49,482 nucleotides of DNA, from the NCBI GenBank assembly GCA_030448025.1, contig JAUJNQ010000001.1, positions 149,776 to 199,257 of the forward strand. Direction: 5' to 3'. Each line of letters begins with the position of its first letter. Position 1 is the first letter of the stretch. This DNA is from Acidimicrobiales bacterium (GTDB taxonomy: Bacteria; Actinomycetota; Acidimicrobiia; Acidimicrobiales; GCA-2861595). The notes under the pieces were generated by a model. It made no database searches. It was not told the origin of the DNA and saw nothing but the letters and a program-made list of their open reading frames with translations. A program made the translations under genes and the position numbers. Of the stretch, positions 6,093 through 47,274 are shown in pieces.

Positions 6093-7596
6093 TCAGGGTG
6101 CGGAAGTTGTTCGTCGTCGTGTCGGTGGTCCGGTGCCAGGTCGTGCGGGTGCGTCGGGTGTCTGCCCCGGCCCAGTAGTGGTAGGTGCGGGCTCGGCGCT
6201 GATGAGGGCGCCGATCTTGGTGGCGTTGTTGGCCAGTACGCCCCAGGCGCACCACGTCTGGGCCCGCCGATGCCATCGGTCAGGCTGCGCCGCCAGCCGT
6301 GGTCGCGCTTGAGCGAGGAGATGCGTGCTTCCGATCCGGTCCGCCACTTGACGAGCTTGCGGAAGCTGCGACGGCCCTGCACCTCTCGTCGGGCTGCGCC
6401 CGGCTTGCCCTTGCGGGGGATCACCACCTTCTTGACGCCCATCGCCTGCAGCCCGGCGTCGACGCCCGCTTCGCCGTAGCCGCGATCGGCGGTGACGGCC
6501 CGGGGCACCTTTGCGAAGCGGGCCGCGATGCGGGCCATGGCGGGCACCAGCATTGGAGCGTCGGGCGGGTTGCCCTTGACCACGTGGTGGTCACCACGAT
6601 CCCGTCGGCGTTGTCCACCACCTGGGCCTTGTAGCCGAACTCCACCGGCTTGCCCAGGCGCCCCTTGGCGATGGGCCGGGCGTCGGTGTCGTGCAGGGAC
6701 ACGACCCGGGTGGAGCCGTCGGGCACCTCGCCGCCGAGTCGGACCCGGGTCTGGGCCGCGATCGCCTCCAGCACCTCGGCGCCTCTCTCCAGCTCGGCCA
6801 CCAGCGCCGCTGCCTTGGGCGACGCCCCCCGACCGGCCCGGGCTAGGCCCCGCCGGGCGTTGGCGGCCAGGTGGCGGGCGTCGGTGACCGCGGTCTCGGC
6901 GATGCCCGCCATCTCGGCGGTGATGGCCTTGACCTCGGCCTTGGCGTCGTCGTTGCGCCGGCGCAGCCAGGCGGCGATGGCATGGGCCCGGCGGCGCACC
7001 GATCGGGTGCGGTCCCGGGCTGTGGTGCGGGTGGCCAGCCCGCAGTCCTTGATCTTCTTGGTGAGCCGGGCCAGCTTGGCCACGCCCTTGGCCAACAGCC
7101 CTGAGTCGGTGGGATAGGAGACGTTGGCCTCCACCACCGTGGTGTCGGCCCGAAGCTTGTCGAGGCGGATCACTTTGGCCTCCGCCGCCTTGGCCAACAG
7201 GGCCTCGTTGAGCCCGGCCACCGCCTTCTCGCCACAGCGGGACGTGATCTTCATGAGCGTGGTCGGGTGCGGAGCCGACGTGCCGAGCGGCACCCGGCAG
7301 AACCGCCTCCAGGCCAGGGAGTCGGCCACCTCGGCGCACAGCGGCTCGAAACCGAGCTTGTAGCGGTACTTCAAGAACATCATGCGCAGATAGGTCTCCA
7401 TCGGGATCGACGGCCGGCCTATCACCGGGTCGAAGAAGGCCCGGAAGGGCTCGAAGAACACCGGGTCGTCCAAGAGGACGTCGATCTGAGCCAAGTCCCC
7501 GGGCAGGCCCATGAGGCATTCGGGGATCAGCGACTCCCACAGGGTGGGCTGGGGGCTTACGGTACGTAGCACGATGGCCTCGACTCCTTCTCGCAC
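6093..7596 (-). pseudogene. IS5-like DDE transposase with two frameshifts
   Basis: The N-terminal part is a DUF772-type domain (FFDPVIGRPSIPMETYLRMM), followed by a long helical region and a DDE domain. The three acidic residues are visible but in different frames: the first Asp in LRADTTVVEAN, the second in TADRGYGEAG, and the Glu in RTGSEARISSLKR. Reading 7596 to 6093 needs two compensating shifts. One is near 6588-6592, where VVDHHVVKGN is out of phase with the upstream frame. The other is near 6265-6272, in a G run before the conserved C-terminal WCAWGVLANNATK. Each looks like loss of one base. With both shifts unrepaired no full-length transposase is made. Confidence 0.85.
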
Positions 7597-8506: not shown

Positions 8507-9928
8507 TCAGAACGGGCCGGTGAGGTAGAGCGAGCGCCTGGCGGCGCGGGCCACGGTGGGATGGGCGGGACCGGTGGCGATGGCCCGCAGCACGCGCGTG
8601 GCATCGGGATGACCTGATCGGGCGACCACCCCGACGGCGGCGACCTGTTCGTCGGGCGGGCCCAGGCCGGCCAGGAGATCTACCACCTCGTCGCGGTCGG
8701 CGTCGGCGCCCAGCGCCAGCGCTTCCACCAGGGCGGCTGCCGTGTCCTCAGGAGAGATGGCGTCGGGTGCCTCGAGGCCCTGGTTCACCAGCCACACGCT
8801 GGCGAGGGGCCGCAGCCTGGGGTGCTCCCGCAGTCGGCGAACAGCCGGCTCCCCAGCCGGAGCCAGCATGGAGAAGGCCTCCAGGGCCATGGCGGCAAGG
8901 GCCGGCTCCGGCAGCTCCAGCACGGCCCGGCACAACTCGTCGGCTGCCTCCTCGGGCCGGCGGGCCTGGCACCAGCGGGCCAGTTGCTCGAAGGCTTCGT
9001 CCTCTCCGAGCTCGCCGCAGACCTCGAGGAGCGACAGGGCGTCCTCCTCGACCAGGTCGAGGTCGTCCTCGTCCTCGTCGCCGAGACCGGCGATCACATC
9101 GACCAAGCCGGCCAGGACACCGCCCAACGGGGTGAGGGTGATCTCGTCTCCGTCTCGGGCCACGACGCCGGCGTCGGCCAGCTGGGCAACGAGGCCCTCG
9201 ATCACCACGTCGACGCGATGGCGCTCCCGCTCGTTGTCCTTGCGGTAGCCGTACTGGCCGGCGACGTCCTCCCAGGCCGACTCCTGCACCAAGCCGAGGG
9301 CGACGGGTTGGCCGGCTCCGGCCAGGGCGACCAGCAGGCCGGGGACGCTGCCGTCGAGCATCTCGACATAGCCCGGCCGCCAGCCTTCCTGGAAGCCGCC
9401 GAGCACACCGTTCTCCAGCAGAGCGAAGGCAACCTTCAGCCAGGCGGTGAGCGGGTCGGTCTCGAGCGCTTCGCCAAGCGGTCCGGGCAGGAGGCGCTGC
9501 CCTCGCACGGCCAGGAGCTCGGCCGACACCGCCCACCGGAGAGCGTGGGCCACGTCAGGCAGGTCGCCCATGCTGCGGACCTCGCCGTCGACCGTATCGC
9601 GGGTACCCAGCACGGCGACAAGCTCCCTTGCGTCGGCCAGCTTCAGGTTCCCCGCCTGGGTGGCGGGGCGGCCCTTGCCGACGAAGGCGAGCAACCGGCG
9701 AAAGCGAGCGACCGCCGGCACCTCCCGGACTTCCTGGACCAGGGCAGCCGCCTCGGCTGCCTCCTGCTCACCGGAGTCTTCCAGCAGCTCGTGCAGCGGG
9801 GTGTCGAGCACCCGCTCGATCTCGGCGACGGCCACCTTGAGCTCGGTCTCCGGCTCTGGCTGCGGCGCCCTCCGAACGTGACTCTCCACTCCACGGGCCG
9901 GGCCCTTGCGTCGGTGTCGACCGGTCAT
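8507..9928 (-). CDS. Uncharacterised 473-aa helical protein, divergent from jetA
   Basis: I do not recognise a named family. The start is ATG at 9928. The N-terminus is basic and probably disordered (residues 1-30), followed by alternating amphipathic helices. A central stretch has a winged-helix-like feel (GLVAQLADAGVVARDGDEITLTPLG without the middle residues). An acidic linker is rich in Asp and Glu (DEDEDDLDLVEEDALS). The C-terminal 180 residues read like HEAT-type helical pairs (AVGVVARSGHPDATRVLRAI). It has no transmembrane segment. It is transcribed away from the Wadjet operon across a 184-bp divergent region. A defence link is possible only by position. Confidence 0.7.
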   Translation of the reverse strand: MTGRHRRKGPARGVESHVRRAPQPEPETELKVAVAEIERVLDTPLHELLEDSGEQEAAEAAALVQEVREVPAVARFRRLLAFVGKGRPATQAGNLKLADARELVAVLGTRDTVDGEVRSMGDLPDVAHALRWAVSAELLAVRGQRLLPGPLGEALETDPLTAWLKVAFALLENGVLGGFQEGWRPGYVEMLDGSVPGLLVALAGAGQPVALGLVQESAWEDVAGQYGYRKDNERERHRVDVVIEGLVAQLADAGVVARDGDEITLTPLGGVLAGLVDVIAGLGDEDEDDLDLVEEDALSLLEVCGELGEDEAFEQLARWCQARRPEEAADELCRAVLELPEPALAAMALEAFSMLAPAGEPAVRRLREHPRLRPLASVWLVNQGLEAPDAISPEDTAAALVEALALGADADRDEVVDLLAGLGPPDEQVAAVGVVARSGHPDATRVLRAIATGPAHPTVARAARRSLYLTGPF

Positions 9929-10046: not shown

Positions 10047-10112
10047 CAAAGTGACCACGTGGATGTAATTACGCCCTTGTGCTCTGTCACACTTACCTGG
10101 TTCGATGGGGGC

Positions 10113-11726
10113 GTGCAGAGCGGGGTGCGATCGTGGCGGCGGTTGTCGGCCGACCTCTTCCGTTTCACCACCACCGACCTGCGGGAGCTGCACATGGCGG
10201 TGATGACCGCCTTCGAGGAGTCGGCCGTGGTCCAGCCCGCCCTCCGGTTCGAGGAGGTCCGCCACGGCCTGAGCCGCCTGGGCTGGGACGAGCCTCTCGA
10301 CGACGACCACCTCTCCCACACCCTGGGCGCCCTGGTGGGGTGGGGCCTGCTCGACGTCACCCAGGATCACGCCGCCCACTACGCCACCCCCGAGGAGTTC
10401 GAGCGCCGCAACCTGCAGTGGTCGCTCACCGCCGAGGGCCAGGCCGCCATCGGTGGCGTGCTGCACGCCGTGGCCGAGCTCCGCCGGGCCGTGAGCCTGC
10501 AGCCGGCGGTGCTCGACGCCATCGCCGACGGCCTGGTCGACCTGCACCGGCTCCTGACCCTGCCGGTGGCCAACGCCGCGTCCGACAGGTCGGACGACCC
10601 CGCCGCCGCGGACTCTGGAGGTAGCCACGCGGGTCGCGTCTCGACCACGCTGACGGCCGTAGAGGGCCACCTCGAGTCCCTCGTGGCCAGTGTGCGGGCG
10701 TTCAACACCCACCTCCAGCGCCTGCTCCGCGACGACGCCACCGCCGACCACGTGTTCCTCGACGTGAAGCGCCGAACCATCACCTACCTCGAGGACTACA
10801 TCGCCGGCGTCGAGCGACCGGCCCGGCGGGTAGCTGTCGCGGCCAAGAAGCTCGAGCGCGACGTGGGCGTGGCCGTGTTGCACGACCGTGCCCTGGCCGG
10901 CGCCAACCTGGCGCCCATGGCCGGGGGCGACCCGGCGCCCGCGTGGCTCGAGGAGCGGGCCCGGCGGTGGGCCGCCCTGTTGGCATGGTTCGCCCCCGAG
11001 TCGGGCGAGGCCAAGATCACCTCCCTGGTCGCTGTCGGCCGCCAGGCCATCATCCAGCTGCTCCGGGTGCTGGAGCGCCGCTTCGAGGCTCGCCGCCGGT
11101 CGGCGTCGGTGGTCGAGGACTTCCGTGCCCTGGCCGGCTGGTTCTCGGCCGCCATCAGCGAGGAGGAGGCCCACCGCCTGTTCAACGCCGCCTTCGGCCT
11201 CTGGCCCGCCCGCCATGCCCACCTCCTGCAGGACGACGAGGAGGCGCTGCCCGCCACCACCAGCTGGCTCGAAGCGCGCCCGGTGGAGGTGGCACCCGCC
11301 CTGCGCACCTCGGGCACGCTCACCAACCGGGGCCGGCCCCGCCCCATCGGTGACCCCTCGGTGGTCCGGGCCCGCCGCCAGCGCGAGCAGGCCGAGGCGC
11401 TCGCTCGCCACCACCGGCTCCGGAGGGCGCTGGCCACCGACGGCTCGGTGCCGTTGTCGAGCTTCGGGCGCCTCGACGCCACCGCCTTCGCCGAGTTGCT
11501 GGCGCTGCTGTCGGAGGCCCTGGCCGCCGTGCCTTCCGGTGACGGCGCCCGGCGGGCTCTGAGCGCGGACGGCCAGGTGGAAGTGGTCCTTGTCCCGCCC
11601 TCGCCGGGGGCTTCTCCCGTGCGGTTGTCCACCGAGGCGGGCATGCTGACGGCGCCCGACTTCGGGATACGCATCGATCTGGTGGCCGTGCCCGCCGGCG
11701 CGCAGCAGGAGGCCTCCAGTGCCTGA
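10113..11726 (+). CDS. jetA: Wadjet JetA (TIGR02677/DUF2397 family)
   Basis: A kleisin-like subunit of an SMC complex that blocks plasmids. The N-terminal block (SADLFRFTTTDLRELHMAVM, then a winged-helix-like segment to about residue 120) and the long helical middle are typical of the DUF2397 family. The length of about 537 residues fits. Starts at 10059 and 10125 are also in frame. I chose GTG at 10113 because family members begin shortly before the SADL block. No strong ribosome site decides it. The gene ends inside the start of jetB with an 8-bp overlap. By family knowledge JetA bridges the JetC heads, like MukF. Confidence 0.9.
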   Translation: MQSGVRSWRRLSADLFRFTTTDLRELHMAVMTAFEESAVVQPALRFEEVRHGLSRLGWDEPLDDDHLSHTLGALVGWGLLDVTQDHAAHYATPEEFERRNLQWSLTAEGQAAIGGVLHAVAELRRAVSLQPAVLDAIADGLVDLHRLLTLPVANAASDRSDDPAAADSGGSHAGRVSTTLTAVEGHLESLVASVRAFNTHLQRLLRDDATADHVFLDVKRRTITYLEDYIAGVERPARRVAVAAKKLERDVGVAVLHDRALAGANLAPMAGGDPAPAWLEERARRWAALLAWFAPESGEAKITSLVAVGRQAIIQLLRVLERRFEARRRSASVVEDFRALAGWFSAAISEEEAHRLFNAAFGLWPARHAHLLQDDEEALPATTSWLEARPVEVAPALRTSGTLTNRGRPRPIGDPSVVRARRQREQAEALARHHRLRRALATDGSVPLSSFGRLDATAFAELLALLSEALAAVPSGDGARRALSADGQVEVVLVPPSPGASPVRLSTEAGMLTAPDFGIRIDLVAVPAGAQQEASSA

Positions 11727-13005
11727 CCTCCTCGCCGGCCCCGCCGGGGAGGTCGGCGAGCGGTCCCTGGCCGTTCGCACCCTCCTCGGGACCCCGTTCC
11801 TGGTGGCCGACGCCGACCCCGATGGCTTCGCCGCAGTCGCCCGCCACCGGAGCTGGCTCATCGAGTGGTTCGAGGACACGTGCGGCTGGGCCCTCGCGGT
11901 CGACCTCCCCGGCCGCTTTGCCCGCCTCACCAAGCGCTCGGCTCGTCCCGACCCCACCCGTCCGGCTCGGCGCAGCCGGGGCCAGAAGTTGCCTTTCGAC
12001 CGTCGCCGCTACGAGCTGCTGGCCCGTCTGTGCGCCGAGCTGGCCACCCACCAGGTGACCACCATCGGCATCCTGGCCGGCGCCCTGGCCGGCGAGTCGG
12101 CCGGGGCCTTCGACTCCAGCCTTCAGCGTGAGCGGGCCGCCTTCGTGGACGCCTTCCGCCAGCTGGGCGCCTGGGGCGTCGTCCGCTTCGAGGGAGGCGA
12201 CCTCGACGGGTACGTGAGCGACCGGCAGGGCAACGCCCTGGTGTTCGTGGACAGCGGCCGGGTTCACCGCCTGCTCGCCCCTTCGCTGGCGCCCTGCCGG
12301 GTCGAAGCCGACACCACCGCCCAGGCCGTCGACCGGTTGGCGGCCGAACCCCGCTACGGGCCAGGCGATGACGTCGACGATGAAGACGAGGTCGAAGACT
12401 TTGGCGTCGATGACCGCCACCGGCCCGGCGACGAGCGGCGCCGCCGGCGGGCCCGCCACGCCCTCGCCCGCCGCCTGCTCGACGACCCGGTCGTCCACGT
12501 GGACGAGCTGGACGAGGAGGAGCGGGCCTACCTCGCCTCACCATCGGGCCGCCGCTGGCTTCGCGACCGGGTGGGCGAGGCCGGCTTGGTCCTCGAGGAG
12601 CGGACCGAGGGGCTGCTGGCCGTGGACCCCGACGCCGTGGCCACCGACCAGCGGTTCCCGGCCCCCAACAGCACGGTGCGCCAGGTCGCCCTCATCCTCG
12701 TGGACCACCTGGTCACCGGAGTGGCGGGATCCCGCGTCCTCGCTGAGCGGAGCAGCGCCGAGTTGGCTTCCCAAGTGGCCAGGTTGCTCGGCGACCACCC
12801 GAACTGGGCCCGCGACTACCAGGATGACGACGGCGCGGCGCGCCTCGTTGCCTCCGCCCTCGACCTGCTGGCCTCCCTGGGCCTGGTGGTACTGGAGCGC
12901 ACGCCCGGCGGCGACCCCGACGGCGTCTCCGGCGGTGTTGTGGCCCGCCCCCGCCCGGCCCTGGCCCGCTACGCCGTCGCCCCGCTGGAGGGGGCCCTGC
13001 TGTGA
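11719..13005 (+). CDS. jetB: Wadjet JetB (TIGR02678/DUF2398 family)
   Basis: A 428-residue protein of the DUF2398 family, the MukE-like partner that binds the kleisin JetA. Features include an N-terminal winged-helix region (residues 1-60), the RRRYELLARLCAELA block near residue 95, a basic segment (ERRRRRARHALARRLL), and a C-terminal winged-helix repeat (VRQVALILVDHLV). A long acidic stretch (GDDVDDEDEVEDFGVDD) lies in the middle. GTG at 11719 overlaps jetA by 8 bases. Its TGA is shared with the first GTG of the 15-bp repeat array that separates it from jetC. Confidence 0.9.
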   Translation: MPDLLAGPAGEVGERSLAVRTLLGTPFLVADADPDGFAAVARHRSWLIEWFEDTCGWALAVDLPGRFARLTKRSARPDPTRPARRSRGQKLPFDRRRYELLARLCAELATHQVTTIGILAGALAGESAGAFDSSLQRERAAFVDAFRQLGAWGVVRFEGGDLDGYVSDRQGNALVFVDSGRVHRLLAPSLAPCRVEADTTAQAVDRLAAEPRYGPGDDVDDEDEVEDFGVDDRHRPGDERRRRRARHALARRLLDDPVVHVDELDEEERAYLASPSGRRWLRDRVGEAGLVLEERTEGLLAVDPDAVATDQRFPAPNSTVRQVALILVDHLVTGVAGSRVLAERSSAELASQVARLLGDHPNWARDYQDDDGAARLVASALDLLASLGLVVLERTPGGDPDGVSGGVVARPRPALARYAVAPLEGALL

Positions 13006-13104
13006 AGCGACTCGCCGTCAAGGAACTCGCTGTGAAGCGACTCGCCGTCAAGGAACTCGCTGTGAAGGACTCGCTGTGAAGGAACTCGCTGTGAAGGAGC
13101 CGTC
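13002..13104 (+). repeat. 15-bp tandem repeat array carrying repeated ribosome sites before jetC
   Basis: Seven head-to-tail units fill the whole jetB-jetC gap: GTGAAGCGACTCGCC, GTCAAGGAACTCGCT, the same pair again, then GTGAAGGACTCGCT (14 bp, one base lost), GTGAAGGAACTCGCT, and GTGAAGGAGCCGTC leading into ATG. The GTG at 13002 overlaps the jetB TGA. Units with AAGGA place a Shine-Dalgarno core about seven bases before the next GTG. The last unit gives AAGGAG five bases before the jetC ATG. Read from 13002 the array encodes VKRLA/VKELA pentads for 25 codons and stops at 13079 because of the 14-bp unit. A second reading starts at 13076 and stops at 13108, overlapping the jetC ATG. Confidence 0.95.
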
Positions 13105-16100
13105 ATGACCGCAACCGCCGGAACCACCGCAACCACCGCCCGCCTCGGCCGCGGACAGCGGTGGCAGCCGGTTCGGGCCGGGCTCGTCAACGTGTGGCGC
13201 TACGCCGAGGAGGAGCTCACCTTCCACCAGGGCCGGGTGCTGCTGCGCGGCGCCAACGGGTCGGGCAAGTCTATGGCCCTGGAGCTGCTGTTCCCATTCC
13301 TCCTCGACGCCAACGCCCAGCCCGGGCGCCTCTCGTCGGCCGCCAAGTCCCGGGGCGGGCTGTTCGAGCGGCTCATTTCCGGCCTCGAAGGGCGCGACCG
13401 CGTGGGCTTCCTGTGGGCCGAGTTTGCCCGCCACGGCGAGATGGGAGAGCAGACCTTTACCGTCGGCGTGCGTCTGCGGGCCTCCAGCGCCACCCGCAAG
13501 GTGGACTACGCCTGGTTCACCACCACCCTCGCCGTGGGCCGGGGCCTAGAGCTGTTCGACGAGCACCGCATTCCCTTGTCGAGGGCCGGCCTCGACGAGG
13601 CCCTCACCGGCGCCGGCAGCGGCACCGTCCACTCTGGCCCCGACGACTACCGCCGTACGGTGCGCACCACCCTGTTCGCCGGCTGCGATGAGCGCCAGTA
13701 CGACGCCGCCATCAACACCCTGCTCGCCCTGCGGCGGGAGAAGATCTCCCAGGATCTCAATCCCGAGAAGCTCTCCAACGTCCTCGGCGCGTCGCTGCCG
13801 CCGCTCGACGAGTACGACATCGCCGAGGTGGCCGAGGGCTTCGAGAAGCTCGAGCGCCGCAAGGACGAGCTGGAGCACCTGGAGGCCGACCTCCACCAGG
13901 TCCGCCGGCTGGGCCGGCGCCAGCGCGACTACGCCCGGGCCGTGATGGCGGGGGTGGCGAGCCGAGTGCGCGCCGCCACCACCCGTCGCGACGACGTAAC
14001 CCGGCGGGAGCGCCAGGCAGCGGAAGCGCTGGCCGGAGCCCAGGCCGAGGTGACCCGGGTGGAGTCCGATGACGCCGCCGCCGACCGCCGCACTGCGGAG
14101 CTGCGGGCTGAGGTCGACGCGCTCAAGAGCCTCGACGCCTACCGGGCGGGGGGCCAGATCGAGCTGCTCCGGGGAGAGGCCCACCGGGCCGAGCGCCGCG
14201 CCGTGGAGGAGCAGGAGGCGGTGCTGGCCCGTCGCCACGAAGTGGGGGGCCGGGAGGAGGCGCTCGGGGAGCGGCGCCAAGAGAAGGAGGACGCCGCCGC
14301 CGCCGTCGGGCGGGCCGGCGCCGAGCTGGTTGCAGCGGGCGACGCGGCCGGAGCCATGGCCGTGGTGGAGGAGGCCGCGGCGGCACCGGTCGACGAGGCC
14401 GAGACCCTGCTCACGGCGTGGACCGAGGGTCGCCGGCGCCAGCTGGTCGAGGTGCGCCACGCCCTGGGCGTCCTCGCGCGGGCCATCGACGGCCGTGATC
14501 GGGCTGAGCGGGCGCTCGAGGAGGAGCGGTCGGCGCTCGCCGGCGCGTCCGGGCGCCGTGACGAAGCTGAGGAGTCGGTCAGCGTCGCCGTGGCCGACTA
14601 CACGGCGGACATCTCGGCATGGGCCGGGTCCTGCACCACCCTCGCCGCCACCACCTTGCGGGCCGCCCTGCCGTCGCCGCCCGACGACCCTGCGGCCGTG
14701 GTCACGGCGGTGGGCGAGGTGGCCGTTGCGGCTCGGTCTGCCATGGCGGTGGCGGCCGACCGGCTGGCGGCGGCGGTGGCTGAGTCCAAGGAGCGGGAGG
14801 CCGGCCTTCGCGCCGAGCGGGACGAGCTGGCCGCGGGCAGGGTGGGGGAGCCGGATGTTCCCGCCTGGCGTTCGCCCCGCTCCGAAGAGCGCGCCGGCGC
14901 CCCGCTCTGGCGGCTGGTCGACGTGGCTGATGGAGTGGGCGCCGCCGGCTTGGAAGGGGTCGAGGCCGCCCTGCTGGCCAGCGGCCTGCTCGACGCCTGG
15001 GTTACGCCTGACGGCCGGGCCACCCTGCCCGCAGAGGCCGACGTGGTGGTGGACCGGGACGACCAGTCGGGCGCGGGCGGCGCCGGGCGGTCCCTGGCCG
15101 ACGCGCTGGTCCCGGCCGAACTCGACGCTCCGCCCGTGCCGGCGCCCGTGGTGGCCGGGCTGCTGGCCGCCATCGGCCTGGTCGATTCCGTGCAGCCCGG
15201 GCGCACCGCGGGGCCGGCCATCGGCCTCGACGGCACCTTCCGGATCGGCCCGTTGGTCGGGCGGGGAGCAGTGCACGCGGCCGCCTTCGTGGGCGCCGCG
15301 GCCCAGGAGCAGCGCCGGGCCCGCCGACTGGCCGAGCTGGACGAAGCCTTGGCCGAGCTGGTCGGCGCCCGGGCCGGGCTGGAGCGCCGCCTCGACGACC
15401 TGAGGCGGGATCAGGCCGCCCTTGAGGCGGAGGTGGCCGCCCTTCCGAGCGGCGAGCCCATCGAGCGGGCGGATCGGGCCTTGGCTGTCGCCGAGCAGCG
15501 TGTGGCCGACGCCAGGGCCCGGGTGGACCGCTCGGAGAGAGCCCGGTCCGAGGCCGAGGCTTCGGCCCGAGCCGCCCAGCGTGACCTCATGCAGCTGGCC
15601 GCGACCTCAGGGCTACCCACCGAGGCGGGCGGCTTGGAGGAGCTGGACGGGCGGCTCCGAGCCGTCGAGCGCCTGGCGCCGGCCTGGGCCCAGCGGCGGC
15701 GCCACCTGGCCGGCAGCGAGCGGGTCCGGCGACGGGCCGAGGACGACGTGGCCCGGGCCGGGGCCGAGCTGGAGCGAGCCGAAGCGCGCCACGCCGCTGC
15801 AGCGAGGGAGCACCAGGAGCTGGCCGCCCGCCTGGCCGCCTTGGAGGAGACCGTCGGCGCCGAGTACCGAGAGGTGGTGGGGCGCATCCGGGGGGCGGAG
15901 GGTGAGGTGACCCAGCTCGACGAACAGCGGTTGAGCCACGGTCGCCGCCTGCGAGAGCTGGCGGGGGAGATGGGCCGGTTGGCAGCCGACCTCGACAAGG
16001 CGGAGGTCGAGCGCCAGGCCAGCGAGGCTGAGCGGGACCAGGCCAACGTCGCCTTCCAGGCTGCCGTCAACGATGGTCTGGCCGCCGATGCCGAGCTGCC

Positions 16101-17262
16101 GGTCGGCGTCGGCCCCGGTGAGAGAGCTGGCGAGAGCGCCGCGGGCAGCGCCAGCGCGGTGCTCGACGCCGCCCGCGCCGTGGTCTCGGCGCTGGGGGAG
16201 GGCGCGGCGTCACGGTCCGGAGGGCCCGCCTCACGGGCCGCAGGTCCGGGGTCACGGGCCGAGCACGACCTGCGCTCGCGCGAGGCCCGCCTCCAGGAGG
16301 CCCTCCACCAGGCCAAACAGTCCCTGGGGGGTGGCATCGAACTGGTCCTCGACCAGGCGGACGGTGGGTGGTGGGTGCTACGTGCCGTCAGCGACGGTCT
16401 TCGTCGCCGGGTGGGTGAGCTGGCCGGCGGCCTCGCCGATTCCCTGGCCACTGCACGTGAGGAGCTGCTCGACGAGGAGCACCGCCTCTTCGACGAGACC
16501 CTCACCGGCAGCGTGCGCCGGGCCGTGGCCGAGCGGATCCGACGGTCCAACGCCCTGGTCGACGGCATCAACGCCGAGCTCGCTGAGGTGCGCACTGCGG
16601 CCGCGGGCGTGGGCGTGCGCCTGCGGTGGGAGGTGCACCCCGATCAGCCCGACGCCGTGAAGGCGGCCCGGCGCCTGTTGCTCAAGGACCCCGCCGACCT
16701 GGGCGAGGAGGAGCGGGCCTCGCTATACAGCTTCTTCCGAGCCCGCCTCGACCACGCCCGCCAGGCCCTGGACGGCACGGCCGGCTGGGAGGAGCGCCTG
16801 CGCGACGCCCTCGACTACCGCCGTTGGCACCGCTTCGCCCTCGAGGTGGCCCATCGCGACTGGGACGGCTTCGTCCCCGCTACCGCCAACCGACTGGCCC
16901 GCCTGTCCACCGGCGAGCGCTCGGTGGCCCTGCACCTGCCCATGCTGGCCTCAGTCGCTGCCCACTACGACGGCTTGGGCAGTCCCGGCGCTCCATCGCG
17001 CTGCCCGCGCCTCATTCTCCTCGACGAGCTCTTCGCCGGCGTCGACGTGGCCAACCGGGGCCAGCTGTTCGGGCTGTTCGTCACCTGGGACCTCGACGCC
17101 GTGGTCACCAGCGACCACGAGTGGTGCGCCTACGCCAGCCTCGATGGCATCGCCATCCACCACCTGCACGCCGCCGAACCCGGCGAGCCCGTCACCACCT
17201 CGCGCTTCGTGTGGGATGGCAGGCAGCGGCGGGCCGCCCCCTTGGCCCTGGTGGGCGGATGA
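13105..17262 (+). CDS. jetC: Wadjet JetC SMC-type ATPase (TIGR02680 family)
   Basis: A 1385-residue SMC/MukB-like ATPase, the motor of the complex. The Walker A motif GANGSGKS is at about residues 49-56 and is preceded by the usual WRYAEEELTF strand. The ABC signature LSTGERSVALHLPM starts at about residue 1267, and Walker B LILLDELFAGVD at about 1303. The middle 1000 residues are coiled coil rich in Arg, Glu and Ala, with a globular hinge-like part around residues 590-730. A Ser/Arg/Gly-rich linker from a 21-bp tandem repeat sits near residue 1036. The ATG start has an AAGGAG ribosome site supplied by the last unit of the upstream repeat array. The gene is intact and of normal family length. 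Confidence 0.95.
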   Translation: MTATAGTTATTARLGRGQRWQPVRAGLVNVWRYAEEELTFHQGRVLLRGANGSGKSMALELLFPFLLDANAQPGRLSSAAKSRGGLFERLISGLEGRDRVGFLWAEFARHGEMGEQTFTVGVRLRASSATRKVDYAWFTTTLAVGRGLELFDEHRIPLSRAGLDEALTGAGSGTVHSGPDDYRRTVRTTLFAGCDERQYDAAINTLLALRREKISQDLNPEKLSNVLGASLPPLDEYDIAEVAEGFEKLERRKDELEHLEADLHQVRRLGRRQRDYARAVMAGVASRVRAATTRRDDVTRRERQAAEALAGAQAEVTRVESDDAAADRRTAELRAEVDALKSLDAYRAGGQIELLRGEAHRAERRAVEEQEAVLARRHEVGGREEALGERRQEKEDAAAAVGRAGAELVAAGDAAGAMAVVEEAAAAPVDEAETLLTAWTEGRRRQLVEVRHALGVLARAIDGRDRAERALEEERSALAGASGRRDEAEESVSVAVADYTADISAWAGSCTTLAATTLRAALPSPPDDPAAVVTAVGEVAVAARSAMAVAADRLAAAVAESKEREAGLRAERDELAAGRVGEPDVPAWRSPRSEERAGAPLWRLVDVADGVGAAGLEGVEAALLASGLLDAWVTPDGRATLPAEADVVVDRDDQSGAGGAGRSLADALVPAELDAPPVPAPVVAGLLAAIGLVDSVQPGRTAGPAIGLDGTFRIGPLVGRGAVHAAAFVGAAAQEQRRARRLAELDEALAELVGARAGLERRLDDLRRDQAALEAEVAALPSGEPIERADRALAVAEQRVADARARVDRSERARSEAEASARAAQRDLMQLAATSGLPTEAGGLEELDGRLRAVERLAPAWAQRRRHLAGSERVRRRAEDDVARAGAELERAEARHAAAAREHQELAARLAALEETVGAEYREVVGRIRGAEGEVTQLDEQRLSHGRRLRELAGEMGRLAADLDKAEVERQASEAERDQANVAFQAAVNDGLAADAELPVGVGPGERAGESAAGSASAVLDAARAVVSALGEGAASRSGGPASRAAGPGSRAEHDLRSREARLQEALHQAKQSLGGGIELVLDQADGGWWVLRAVSDGLRRRVGELAGGLADSLATAREELLDEEHRLFDETLTGSVRRAVAERIRRSNALVDGINAELAEVRTAAAGVGVRLRWEVHPDQPDAVKAARRLLLKDPADLGEEERASLYSFFRARLDHARQALDGTAGWEERLRDALDYRRWHRFALEVAHRDWDGFVPATANRLARLSTGERSVALHLPMLASVAAHYDGLGSPGAPSRCPRLILLDELFAGVDVANRGQLFGLFVTWDLDAVVTSDHEWCAYASLDGIAIHHLHAAEPGEPVTTSRFVWDGRQRRAAPLALVGG
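16211..16260 (+). repeat. 21-bp imperfect tandem repeat inside jetC
   Basis: Two 21-bp units beginning CACGGTCCGG and CACGGGCCGC, and a partial third (CACGGGCC), encode an in-frame Ser-Arg-Gly-Pro-Ala linker within the JetC coiled coil. Because the unit is a multiple of three, copy changes would keep the frame. Confidence 0.7.
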
Positions 17263-17278: not shown

Positions 17279-18562
17279 GTGACGAGCGTGCCGGGTGTGT
17301 CATCGGCTGCCGCTCGGGCGGCCCGGCCCGAGCTGGCGGCGCTGTGGGACGAGCTGGCACGCCGCATGAGCGCGTCCGACCGCCCGGTCACAGCGGTGAC
17401 CCTGCGGGGCCTCGACGACCGCCAGCGAGCGGGCGTCGCCGACCTTCTGGGGAGGGAGCGGCTGGTTCCCCCCACGTGCCGGGTGCCCATCGGTGCCGTG
17501 GTCGCTGCGCTCGGACTGGGCCAGCAGGGCTCGGACCGCGATGGCTGGTACCAGGACGCGGCGCTGCGTGGCCTGGTGGAGGAGCTGCGAGGACCGATCG
17601 TGAACAGGACAGAGGCCCGCCGCCGCCAGCAGGCCGAGCGGGTGGCGCTGTGGTCCTGGCTCGAGGTCGAAGCAGCCCGGCTCGGTGTTCCGGGCTGGGC
17701 CGCCGGGTTGCGGGCCGCTGGGGTCCCGGGCAGCGACGTGGGGCGCCACCGGAGCCGGCTTGAGGCGGCGGTGGCCGTGGTCGACGGGGTCCTGGAGGAG
17801 TCGGACAACATGGCGCTTCCCGTCCTGGCCAACGCCGTGCTCGGCGACCCTCATGCTCTGGACCCGGGGACGGCTCTTGCGCCGCTGGTGCTCGGGGCCC
17901 TGGCCGAGCGGTTTGGGCTGGGCCCGCCGCGATCGGCCGAGGAGGCACGGGAGGTTTGGGCCGCGGCGGGCGTGGTGGCCGACGAGCTGTCGTCCAAGGT
18001 GCTCGTGCTGGGCCTTGGGTGTGATCGTTCGGACTCGCCTCTCGGGGCAGCCCTGGGCGCCTTGGCCGAAGGTGGGGAGCCGGCCGTCGTCACGCTCTCC
18101 CAGCTCCGACGCTGGCCTGTGCACCTGGCCGGAACCGCCCGGGAGGTGAGGGTGGTCGAGAACCCCTCGGTGGTAGCCGAGGCGGCGCGAGCTGGTAGAG
18201 GACGGGCAGCCGAGGGGGCGCCGCTGGTGTGCACGTCGGGGTGGCCCAACGTGGCCGTGATGACCCTACTTCGTCAGCTCGCGTCAACGGGAGCGCGGCT
18301 GCGCTGCCATGCCGACTTCGACCCGCCGGGGATCCTCATCGTCCGTCACCTGGTGGCCCGGCTGGGGGCCGAGCCGTGGGGGATGGGCGAGGCCGAGTAC
18401 CTCTCGGGCGCAGGCCAGGCCCGGGTCACCTTTGCCGGCTCAGTGGCCGACACCCCCTGGGATCCCGGCCTGGCTCGGGCCATGCGCGCCCGGCGTCGAG
18501 CCGTGTTCGAGGAGGACGTGAGGGGCACCCTCCTCGGCTTGGACAACCGGGGGAGAACGTAA
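17279..18562 (+). CDS. jetD: Wadjet JetD Toprim-type nuclease (TIGR02679, DUF3323/DUF2399)
   Basis: A 427-residue DNA-cleaving subunit, related to topoisomerase VI A/Spo11. The N-terminal two thirds match the DUF3323-type arm. The C-terminal Toprim domain shows the metal-binding residues: Glu294 in VVENPSVV and the DxD pair Asp346/Asp348 in CHADFDPPG, with the conserved LVCTSGWPN between them. All residues expected for nicking or cutting DNA are present. I chose GTG at 17279, 16 bp after jetC stops. An in-frame reading extends back into jetC but overlaps it without family support. The gene closes the four-gene Wadjet set. Confidence 0.92.
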   Translation: MTSVPGVSSAAARAARPELAALWDELARRMSASDRPVTAVTLRGLDDRQRAGVADLLGRERLVPPTCRVPIGAVVAALGLGQQGSDRDGWYQDAALRGLVEELRGPIVNRTEARRRQQAERVALWSWLEVEAARLGVPGWAAGLRAAGVPGSDVGRHRSRLEAAVAVVDGVLEESDNMALPVLANAVLGDPHALDPGTALAPLVLGALAERFGLGPPRSAEEAREVWAAAGVVADELSSKVLVLGLGCDRSDSPLGAALGALAEGGEPAVVTLSQLRRWPVHLAGTAREVRVVENPSVVAEAARAGRGRAAEGAPLVCTSGWPNVAVMTLLRQLASTGARLRCHADFDPPGILIVRHLVARLGAEPWGMGEAEYLSGAGQARVTFAGSVADTPWDPGLARAMRARRRAVFEEDVRGTLLGLDNRGRT

Positions 18563-18591: not shown

Positions 18592-19038
18592 ATGCGCTGC
18601 TGGACGCCGGAACCCGATGACACGCACCTTCTGGACTGGTGGTTGCCCCTGGTGCGAGTGGCGCGCCGAGCCCTCGACGAAGAGGTGCCTTGGCTCATCG
18701 TGCTCGACGAGTGGGCGTTGGCCTTCCGGGTCGAGCGCCCGGGGCGGCCGGATGTCTGGGTCTACGTGCACGACCGGAGCCGTCGCGAGTTGTGCGTTGA
18801 TCACACCGGTCAGCCGTACCGGTTCATCGCCAACTCGCGCGGCCCGTCCCCGGGGCGGTTCAAGGAGATCGAGATCCGCTCCGCCGTATGGCGGGCAGGT
18901 CTGCCCGACGTCAGCGACGGCGTCTGGTTCGAACGACCCGTCTGCCCTTTCCACCCGCCCGACCGGTACGAGCCGCTCGCCGATGACGACGAGCAGTTCG
19001 AGGACCGGCCGGGCCTACACCTGGTGAGGCAGCCATGA
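18592..19038 (+). CDS. Uncharacterised 148-aa protein in the Wadjet operon
   Basis: I do not recognise this protein. It starts at ATG 18592, 29 bp after jetD, and ends in an ATGA overlap with the DUF2786 gene, so it is almost certainly cotranscribed with jetABCD. It is soluble, rich in Trp, Asp and Arg, with segments such as DDTHLLDWWLPLVRVARRAL and ERPGRPDVWVYVHDRSRREL. The pattern suggests an alpha/beta fold with several beta strands in the middle and an acidic tail. No catalytic motif is evident. Its position suggests a Wadjet accessory, or a helper of the DUF2786 protein. Confidence 0.75.
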   Translation: MRCWTPEPDDTHLLDWWLPLVRVARRALDEEVPWLIVLDEWALAFRVERPGRPDVWVYVHDRSRRELCVDHTGQPYRFIANSRGPSPGRFKEIEIRSAVWRAGLPDVSDGVWFERPVCPFHPPDRYEPLADDDEQFEDRPGLHLVRQP

Positions 19039-20486
19039 GCATCAACAACCGCCAGCGCCGGCGGGCCAAGAAGCACAAGCGCCAGAGGGACCGACGCGAC
19101 GCGGCCCAGAGGGACCAGACACGACAGAGAGACCAGCCGGCCCGGGGCGCTTCGAGCGACCAGCGCCCGGAACAGCCAGACCCCCGCACCCATGGCCGCG
19201 ACTGCTTCGGGGAGGCAAACCCCAGCCCCGGCCCTCGATGGCCCGGCGGGAGGAGGAGCGTCCCCGGCGATGAGGTGGTGCGGGCGACGGTGCTGGCCGC
19301 GGCCGAGGCGTTCCAGCTGGGTCCCGGGCCCGCCTACCAATCACGGCTGGAGGCAGTGCGGGTCCTGGATGCCCGGGCCGGTCGTCCCTCCGTCGATCGT
19401 GCGCTGGCCTGGTGGGTGGAGCGCGGCCTCGACAAGGCGTGGACCTCGGGCTGGCAACCGGCCGACGTGCTCCGGATGCTCCGCCGAAGGCTGAGCCCGG
19501 CCCACGCCGACGCTGTGGCGTCGTCCGTGGCCGAGAGCGGGGCTCGCCGGCCCGAAGCCGCCACCGACCAGCGGTGGGCGGGCCAGGTGGAGGCCATCCG
19601 CCGTGACCTCGGGTCCAGGTCTCCCCGTCCGCTGGGTCACCACCTGGCGCTAGCCGTGGAGGCGGTATCGGTGCTGCTTCGCCTGCCGCCCCTTCCGCGC
19701 CTGGGTGCCACCACCAGGGGTCCCGCCAACGGGCGGACCCGCGCCGGCGGGGATGGGTCGGGCGCCATGCTCGAGCGGGTGCGAGCCCTGCTGGCCAAGG
19801 CCGAGTCCACCACCTTCCCCGAAGAGGCCGAGGCCCTGAGCGCCAAGGCCCAGGAGCTGATGGCCCGCCACGCCATCGACGAGGCCGTGCTCGACGCCGG
19901 GCGCACCGGCGGGCCGGGCGGCGTGGTGGGCTGGCGCATCGGTGTCGACGACCCATACGCCTCGGCCAAGTCGCTCCTCCTCGACCGCATCGCCTCGGCC
20001 AACCGCTGCAGCGCCGTCTGGTGCAAGAACATCGGCTTGAGCACTGTGTTCGGGGTCCCATCCGACCTGGAGATGGTCGAGCTCCTCTTCACCTCGCTCT
20101 TGGTGCAGGGCACCGACGCCATGCTGCATTCCGGCAGTTCCATCGACCGCTCCGGTCGGTCGCGTACCCGCTCCTTCCGCCAATCATTCCTGGTCGCCTA
20201 TGCCGAACGTATCGGTGAGCGCCTGTCGGCCACGGCGGCGCAGGTCGTGGCCGAGGGGGCCGAGCGCTACGGCGACGGCCTCCTCCCCATGCTGGCCAGC
20301 CGGGAGGAGGCGGTCGAGAAGGAGGTGCAAACCGTCTTCCCCACTCTGGTCACGAAGGGCACCGCGGTCAGCAACTACTCGGGCTACGTGGCGGGCCGGG
20401 CCGCGGCCGAGATGGCGTCCTTGGCCGTGGGCGGTGAGGTCACTGCCAGCCCGATGGAGGCAGGAGACGAGGCGATCAGAGGATGA
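19035..20486 (+). CDS. DUF2786-domain protein
   Basis: A 483-residue protein. It has a very basic N-terminus (residues 1-45, many Arg/Lys), a helical middle (about 75-200), and the DUF2786 motif at about residues 247-275 (RALLAKAESTTFPEEAEALS, then AQELMARHAID). A conserved C-terminal domain follows (LVAYAERIGERLSATAAQVV; SNYSGYVAGRAAAEM). The function of DUF2786 is not established. Proteins of this kind occur in actinobacteria and phages. The ATG overlaps the stop of the 148-aa gene (ATGA). It is the last gene of the apparent six-gene Wadjet transcription unit. Confidence 0.85.
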   Translation: MSINNRQRRRAKKHKRQRDRRDAAQRDQTRQRDQPARGASSDQRPEQPDPRTHGRDCFGEANPSPGPRWPGGRRSVPGDEVVRATVLAAAEAFQLGPGPAYQSRLEAVRVLDARAGRPSVDRALAWWVERGLDKAWTSGWQPADVLRMLRRRLSPAHADAVASSVAESGARRPEAATDQRWAGQVEAIRRDLGSRSPRPLGHHLALAVEAVSVLLRLPPLPRLGATTRGPANGRTRAGGDGSGAMLERVRALLAKAESTTFPEEAEALSAKAQELMARHAIDEAVLDAGRTGGPGGVVGWRIGVDDPYASAKSLLLDRIASANRCSAVWCKNIGLSTVFGVPSDLEMVELLFTSLLVQGTDAMLHSGSSIDRSGRSRTRSFRQSFLVAYAERIGERLSATAAQVVAEGAERYGDGLLPMLASREEAVEKEVQTVFPTLVTKGTAVSNYSGYVAGRAAAEMASLAVGGEVTASPMEAGDEAIRG

Positions 20487-47202: not shown

Positions 47203-47230
47203 GGCCGACGGATCCTCGAAGCGGTGACTC

Positions 47231-47274
47231 TGCACTCGACGGCCCTAGACTTGTCGGCCCTACACTTGACGGCG
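47231..47274 (+). repeat. 15-bp tandem repeats ending at the moaC start
   Basis: TGCACTCGACGGCCC, TAGACTTGTCGGCCC and TACACTTGACGGC run head to tail and end directly at the moaC ATG. The unit is 15 bp, the same length as in the jetB-jetC array but different in sequence. No clear Shine-Dalgarno is left in front of moaC. Confidence 0.75.

What the first reader, a model, noticed from the sequence alone, without database searches (positions are those of the whole stretch)
13002..13104. Tandem array of ribosome-site/start modules between jetB and jetC
Seven 15-bp units (one of 14 bp) fill the gap. Each begins with GTG or GTC, most contain AAGGA, and the spacing from AAGGA to the next GTG is right for initiation. 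The first GTG overlaps the jetB stop and the last unit provides the jetC Shine-Dalgarno. The array also codes for VKRLA/VKELA pentads, ended by the one-base loss in unit five and re-entered by a second GTGA overlap. Copy-number change by slippage would switch the coupling frame and could tune or phase-vary JetC, the ATPase, against JetA and JetB. I know of no description of this in Wadjet loci.
Basis: partly seen in the sequence, partly recalled or inferred. Interest (0 to 1): 0.8.

Follow-up and report, generated by a model that had tools for sequence, protein, structure and literature searches.

The report
Repeat array between two defence genes
A short, probably recent stretch of repeated 15-letter DNA separates two genes of an anti-plasmid defence operon; it likely keeps their protein synthesis linked through tiny relay reading frames, but it is not the on/off switch that was proposed.

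Summary
The array is real: 103 bp (13002-13104) between jetB and jetC of a type II Wadjet operon, made of five 15-bp and two 14-bp units. It scores far above chance (TRF 175; best of 40 simulated windows 74). The proposed switch is not: units are 15 bp, a multiple of three, and in silico every single-unit gain or loss leaves the start/stop relay into jetC intact. The array is not a Wadjet feature. Of 47 JetB-confirmed junctions, 35 offer a 4-nt NTGA start at the jetB stop, including the closest sister (JetC 70% identical), where jetC starts at the position of this array's first GTG. Best reading: a lineage-specific minisatellite pushed the jetC start 103 nt downstream. Two chained mini-ORFs (25 and 10 codons), each with -4 overlaps, probably carry ribosomes from jetB to jetC; the last unit supplies the jetC Shine-Dalgarno. 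Translation of the mini-ORFs is inferred, not shown. Known kinds are close: mycobacterial MIRU arrays and synthetic leader ORFs upstream of a gene. No second strain was available to test copy-number variation.

The parts
10059..11726 (+). jetA (JetA2, DUF2397); stop overlaps jetB start by 8 nt
   Evidence: PADLOC JetA2 1.9e-149, Pfam DUF2397
11719..13005 (+). jetB (JetB2, DUF2398), ends EGALL*
   Evidence: PADLOC JetB2 7.9e-97, Pfam DUF2398
12987..12994 (+). GGAGGGGG inside the 3' end of jetB: strong SD for the GTG at 13002; a similar stretch (GAGGGGG) precedes the jetC start of the sister locus L007
   Evidence: duplex energy -11.1 kcal/mol; L007 sequence
13002..13104 (+). tandem array, five 15-bp and two 14-bp units (30-bp higher-order repeat u1u2/u3u4)
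13002..13079 (+). mini-ORF 1, 25 codons, VKRLAVKELAVKRLAVKELAVKDSL; starts in the GTGA overlapping the jetB stop, ends in the GTGA of u6 (translation inferred)
13076..13108 (+). mini-ORF 2, 10 codons, VKELAVKEPS; ends in the ATGA overlapping the jetC start (translation inferred)
13094..13099 (+). AAGGAG, Shine-Dalgarno of jetC, 5 nt before ATG, lies inside mini-ORF 2
   Evidence: duplex energy -8.7 kcal/mol; anti-SD CCTCCTTTCT
13105..17262 (+). jetC (JetC2, SMC-like ATPase)
   Evidence: PADLOC JetC2 E=0; SbcC_Walker_B
13108..13139 (+). 9-bp x 3.6 array (ACCGCAACC) in the jetC N-terminus, part of the same expanded junction
17279..18562 (+). jetD (JetD2, DUF3323/DUF2399); start uncertain (GTG 17279, 17288 or 17297)
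   Evidence: PADLOC JetD2 1.8e-103; Pfam; starts

Best explanation
A lineage-specific minisatellite has grown at the jetB/jetC junction of a type II Wadjet operon. The likely ancestral junction was a 4-nt NTGA overlap, with the jetC SD inside the end of jetB. In this lineage the jetC start lies 103 nt further down and the gap is filled by tandem copies of a 15-bp element. That element carries GTGA (a start that overlaps a stop) and AAGGA. The jetC protein starts at ATG 13105, driven by AAGGAG in the last unit. Ribosomes ending jetB can restart at GTG 13002, read mini-ORF 1, restart at GTG 13076, read mini-ORF 2, and restart at ATG 13105, always with -4 spacing. Coupling is therefore kept across a gap that would otherwise weaken it. 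Unit number changes the length of meaningless peptides, not the frame. SHOWN: the sequence anatomy, the NTGA-type junction in the sister and most relatives, the frame arithmetic, the anti-SD match. INFERRED: translation of the mini-ORFs, the ribosome relay, and that the array itself arose by replication slippage without being selected for.
For: Wadjet II: PADLOC and Pfam. Junction survey: 35 of 47 JetB-confirmed junctions offer a -4 start, 31 of these with an SD of -5 kcal/mol or better; 9 more have a start within -20..+25; only the window, L006 and L027 are further. Sister locus L007 (tree support 100/99; JetC 70%): jetB also ends EGALL and jetC starts at that same NTGA. Chain of NTGA overlaps and its robustness to unit changes. 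99 nt would be beyond efficient coupling in most studies (most efficient at -4 to +3, weak or none beyond 30-40 nt: PMC12548453). The junction RNA is less structured than 199 of 200 shuffles (z +2.30), which suits initiation. L006, same bacterial family, independently has jetB-ATGA-23-codon mini-ORF-ATGA-jetC without repeats.
Against: No expression, ribosome-profiling or reporter data. The internal overlaps follow automatically from a unit that contains GTGA, so they are not independent evidence for a relay; only the final ATGA match is, and by my rough estimate it has a 10-15% chance of arising by luck. Internal SDs are weak (-5.2 to -6.4 kcal/mol) against -8.7 for jetC, so jetC could start on its own. 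Predicted accessibility of the jetC start is similar with or without the array. Some E. coli constructs couple over larger gaps.
Confidence: 0.6

Rival explanations
1. Neutral spacer only: a minisatellite that does nothing. jetC is initiated de novo from its own AAGGAG and ATG, and the mini-ORFs are incidental.
For: Strong stand-alone SD with good spacing (-8.7 kcal/mol); accessibility of the jetC start does not depend on the array; array absent in all relatives; other tandem arrays in this genome show that such repeats arise here.
Against: NTGA overlaps are present at both ends of the array and the strongest SD of the junction (-11.1) still points at GTG 13002, so ribosomes probably do enter the array.
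Confidence: 0.24
2. Phase-variable or tuning switch: unit number changes by slippage and sets JetC level against JetA and JetB.
For: Identical adjacent 30-mers are prone to slippage. In another JetC-like clade a 14-bp repeat at the start differs between two species of one genus, 3 copies in L044 and 1 in L026, so start-site repeats do vary.
Against: Units of 15 bp keep the frame, and the simulated unit changes keep the chain to jetC. No copy-number polymorphism could be observed.
Confidence: 0.06
3. Decayed former N-terminus of JetC: jetC once began at GTG 13002 as in L007, its first codons were duplicated, and a frameshift forced use of ATG 13105.
For: GTG 13002 is at the position of the L007 jetC start; two neighbouring arrays (15 bp and 9 bp) sit on either side of the present start.
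Against: Even with u5 counted as 15 bp, the pentad frame runs into the ATGA stop and not into jetC, so at least one further indel is needed.
Confidence: 0.08
4. Assembly artefact.
For: The genome is a draft of 13 contigs, completeness 98%.
Against: The array (103 bp) is shorter than a usual short read, has unit-specific differences, and lies deep in a 740-kb contig.
Confidence: 0.02

Closest known systems
Mycobacterial interspersed repetitive units (MIRU) of the senX3-regX3 junction
   Same: Tandem repeats between two co-directional operon genes in Actinobacteria. Unit number or length differs between strains (H37Rv three 77-bp units, CDC1551 two 77-bp and one 53-bp: PMC4213456). From memory (Supply et al. 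1997): the repeats hold small ORFs overlapping the flanking stop and start, and coupling was proposed.
   Different: MIRU units are 53-101 bp and dispersed at many loci in one genome (from memory); here the unit is 15 bp, single-locus, and most units carry an SD-like core.
Leader mini-ORF upstream of a gene (synthetic nfORF, PMC13255528; bicistronic design, from memory; axe-txe minigene, PMC8708949)
   Same: A short meaningless ORF close upstream of the target gene, in the synthetic case with a strong RBS inside it next to its stop; shown to raise downstream translation in E. coli.
   Different: Those are single designed ORFs or a two-codon ORF; here a natural repeat array makes two chained mini-ORFs.
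NTGA (-4 nt) translational coupling of operon genes (PMC12548453)
   Same: The same overlap at each step of the chain, and the apparent ancestral state of the jetB/jetC junction.
   Different: Normally direct between two real genes, without inserted mini-ORFs.
TAACTGA direct repeats of Beggiatoaceae and others (PMC4679880)
   Same: Short tandem repeats directly upstream of start codons, with indels in whole 7-nt units between related strains.
   Different: 7-bp unit without SD character, dispersed at many genes, no mini-ORF relay described.

Membership tests
Type II Wadjet (JetABCD) | JetA2, JetB2, JetC2 and JetD2 homologues in one operon | tested here: met
   PADLOC best hits JetA2/JetB2/JetC2/JetD2; Pfam DUF2397, DUF2398, SbcC_Walker_B, DUF3323/DUF2399
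Type II Wadjet (JetABCD) | repeat array at jetB/jetC as a regular part | tested here: not met
   no comparable array at any other JetB-confirmed junction; TRF scan around all fetched jetC starts
MIRU-type intergenic repeats | tandem repeats in an operon junction with mini-ORF overlapping both flanking genes | tested here: met
   GTGA at 13002 and ATGA at 13105, chain (criterion itself from memory)
MIRU-type intergenic repeats | dispersed at many loci of the genome | tested here: not met
   unit pattern with up to 2 mismatches found only at this locus in the own genome
MIRU-type intergenic repeats | unit number varies between strains | not testable with these tools
   no second strain with this system found
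NTGA translational coupling | start and stop codons share bases at -4 nt | tested here: met
   GTGA 13002, GTGA 13076, ATGA 13105
NTGA translational coupling | downstream translation depends on upstream translation | not testable with these tools
   needs reporter fusions
Phase-variable repeat switch | unit gain or loss changes the reading frame or breaks the coupling | tested here: not met
   frame and chain kept in simulated unit gains and losses
Phase-variable repeat switch | expression of the downstream gene changes with unit number | not testable with these tools
   needs fusions or strains with different unit numbers

The most novel reading that the evidence does not exclude
A natural, copy-number-tolerant ribosome relay: a minisatellite whose unit is itself an SD plus overlapping stop/start, so that any number of units keeps two genes of a defence complex translationally coupled, with unit number giving at most a graded change of JetC output.
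Probability: 0.2. Interest if true: 0.5.

Novelty: new variant of a known kind. Interest (0 to 1): 0.3.

Why it matters
If the relay works, it shows how an operon junction can absorb a growing repeat without losing coupling between subunits of one complex. It would also be a natural counterpart of engineered leader-ORF designs. For Wadjet itself it matters little: the array was not found in the system in other hosts.

Tried and rejected
Frame-switch model: rejected by the frame arithmetic. Array as a conserved Wadjet element: rejected. Shared ancestry of the L006 spacer with the array: only a 9-nt match, 5.4% of shuffles as good, and its sister L012 has a plain -4 junction, so not accepted. 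Unit elsewhere in the genome: none with 0-2 mismatches; the 3-mismatch hits outside the array are scattered. Exact unit pattern in viral contigs: none; JetC relatives in viral contigs: none. Regulatory hairpin: the junction folds less well than shuffles. Coding selection on the pentads: by eye 2 of 4 variable unit positions are third codon positions, no signal. Artefact: unlikely (see rivals). Open library papers on Wadjet were seen mostly as titles and abstracts.

Full report
What is there. The window (G000, contig C4, 149776-199257) carries a complete type II Wadjet operon: jetA 10059-11726, jetB 11719-13005, jetC 13105-17262, jetD about 17279-18562. Between jetB and jetC lies a 103-bp tandem array. 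Its seven units are listed. The pairs u1u2 and u3u4 are identical 30-mers. u5 lacks one A. u7 matches in its first half and continues into the jetC ribosome site. TRF gives score 175 at period 30 and 137 at period 15. In 40 second-order Markov simulations of the window the best score was 74. In 400 kb of the same contig four arrays score higher. I checked 15 of the stronger arrays against long reading frames: 13 lie inside a long ORF on one strand or the other, and one (64037-66240, a 273-bp repeat) is not contained in a single long ORF. For the present array the only long ORF that covers it is an alternative frame of jetB. So the array is well above chance, and unusual in this sample for lying at a gene junction.

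Reading frames. jetB ends in GTGA (13002-13005), so a GTG overlaps its stop. From that GTG a 25-codon frame (VKRLAVKELAVKRLAVKELAVKDSL) ends in the GTGA of u6. From that GTG a 10-codon frame (VKELAVKEPS) ends in the ATGA of jetC. jetC has no other start codon upstream of 13105 before an in-frame stop. SD energies against the tail of 16S rRNA are -11.1 kcal/mol for GTG 13002, -5.2 to -6.4 for the internal GTGs and -8.7 for the jetC ATG; the organism's own 16S gene ends GGATCACCTCCTTTCT, the tail used. The -11.1 site, GGAGGGGG, lies in the end of jetB.

The switch does not follow. A 15-bp unit is five codons. I removed and duplicated units in silico, and the NTGA chain still ended on the jetC ATGA. 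The one case the script flags, loss of u1, destroys the present jetB stop; reading on, JetB gains five codons and ends at the next GTGA. Changing the number of 14-bp units only changes how many mini-ORFs share the gap. Copy number therefore does not matter for the frame of the coupling. This is the opposite of a contingency switch.

Relatives. I searched about 1,200 genomes of the family, order, class and phylum with the JetC N-terminus, the genus with JetB, public genome contigs, viral contigs and plasmids. No second strain with this system turned up; the one other genome of the genus has no JetB match. Of 47 distinct junctions with JetB confirmed, 35 offer a start at -4 nt (31 of them with an SD of -5 kcal/mol or better) and 9 more have a start within -20 to +25. 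Only this window (99 nt after the stop), L006 and L027 are further. That a -4 start is available does not prove that it is the one used. In a JetC tree the window pairs with L007 with support 100/99. L007 ends jetB with the same EGALL and starts jetC at the same NTGA, with no array. By parsimony the -4 overlap is ancestral, and the array arose on the window's own branch. L006, from the same bacterial family, has its own non-repetitive version of the anatomy: jetB, ATGA, a 23-codon mini-ORF, ATGA, jetC. Its sister L012 has a plain -4 junction, so this looks independent; the only DNA likeness to the array is 9 nt (5.4% of shuffles as good).

How it most likely works. Coupling is most efficient at -4 to +3 nt and weak or absent beyond 30-40 nt in most systems, with exceptions (PMC12548453). 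A bare 99-nt gap would thus loosen JetC from JetB. The mini-ORFs bring each step back to -4. The jetC SD sits inside mini-ORF 2 next to its stop, as in synthetic leader ORFs that raise downstream translation (PMC13255528). The junction RNA is less structured than 199 of 200 shuffles. The anatomy is shown; translation of the mini-ORFs and any effect on JetC are inferred. The internal overlaps are a built-in property of a unit containing GTGA, so they must not be counted as separate proofs. Predicted accessibility of the jetC start does not depend on the array, and jetC has a good SD of its own. A purely passive spacer therefore remains a serious rival.

Known kinds. The nearest natural precedent is the MIRU array between senX3 and regX3 in Mycobacterium tuberculosis, which differs between strains (PMC4213456). 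That MIRU mini-ORFs overlap both neighbours is from memory. The present unit is shorter and occurs at one locus only. TAACTGA repeats before start codons (PMC4679880) and minigenes in operons (PMC8708949) are further relatives in principle. I found no description of such an array among the Wadjet papers listed, most of which I saw only as titles and abstracts.

Verdict. Observation confirmed; phase-variation reading not supported; ordinary origin with a modestly interesting consequence.

Noticed in passing
13108-13139: A second short array (9 bp x 3.6, ACCGCAACC) begins three bases into jetC and gives the N-terminus TATAGTTATTA, absent in the sister L007; the whole junction has expanded.
   Followed up: partly
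L044 and L026 (two species of one genus): Directly before the start of a JetC-like gene of another clade, a 14-bp unit ACCGTGTTGCCGAT stands in 3 copies in L044 and 1 in L026. It contains TACCGT 7 nt before the ATG, like a leaderless -10 element; a start-site repeat that does differ in copy number.
   Followed up: partly
L006, jetB/jetC junction: Non-repetitive 23-codon mini-ORF with ATGA overlaps on both sides between jetB and jetC.
   Followed up: yes
6421-7596 (-): Transposase-like gene (DUF772) about 2.5 kb upstream of jetA, a hint that the operon sits near mobile DNA.
   Followed up: no
8507-9928 (-): 473-aa gene divergent from jetA without a Pfam or PADLOC match.
   Followed up: no
19035-20486 (+): DUF2786/DUF7168 protein of unknown function downstream of jetD.
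   Followed up: no
47233-47273: 15-bp x 2.7 repeat (CACTTGACGGCCCTA) close to the start of a predicted gene at 47224, another possible start-site repeat.
   Followed up: no
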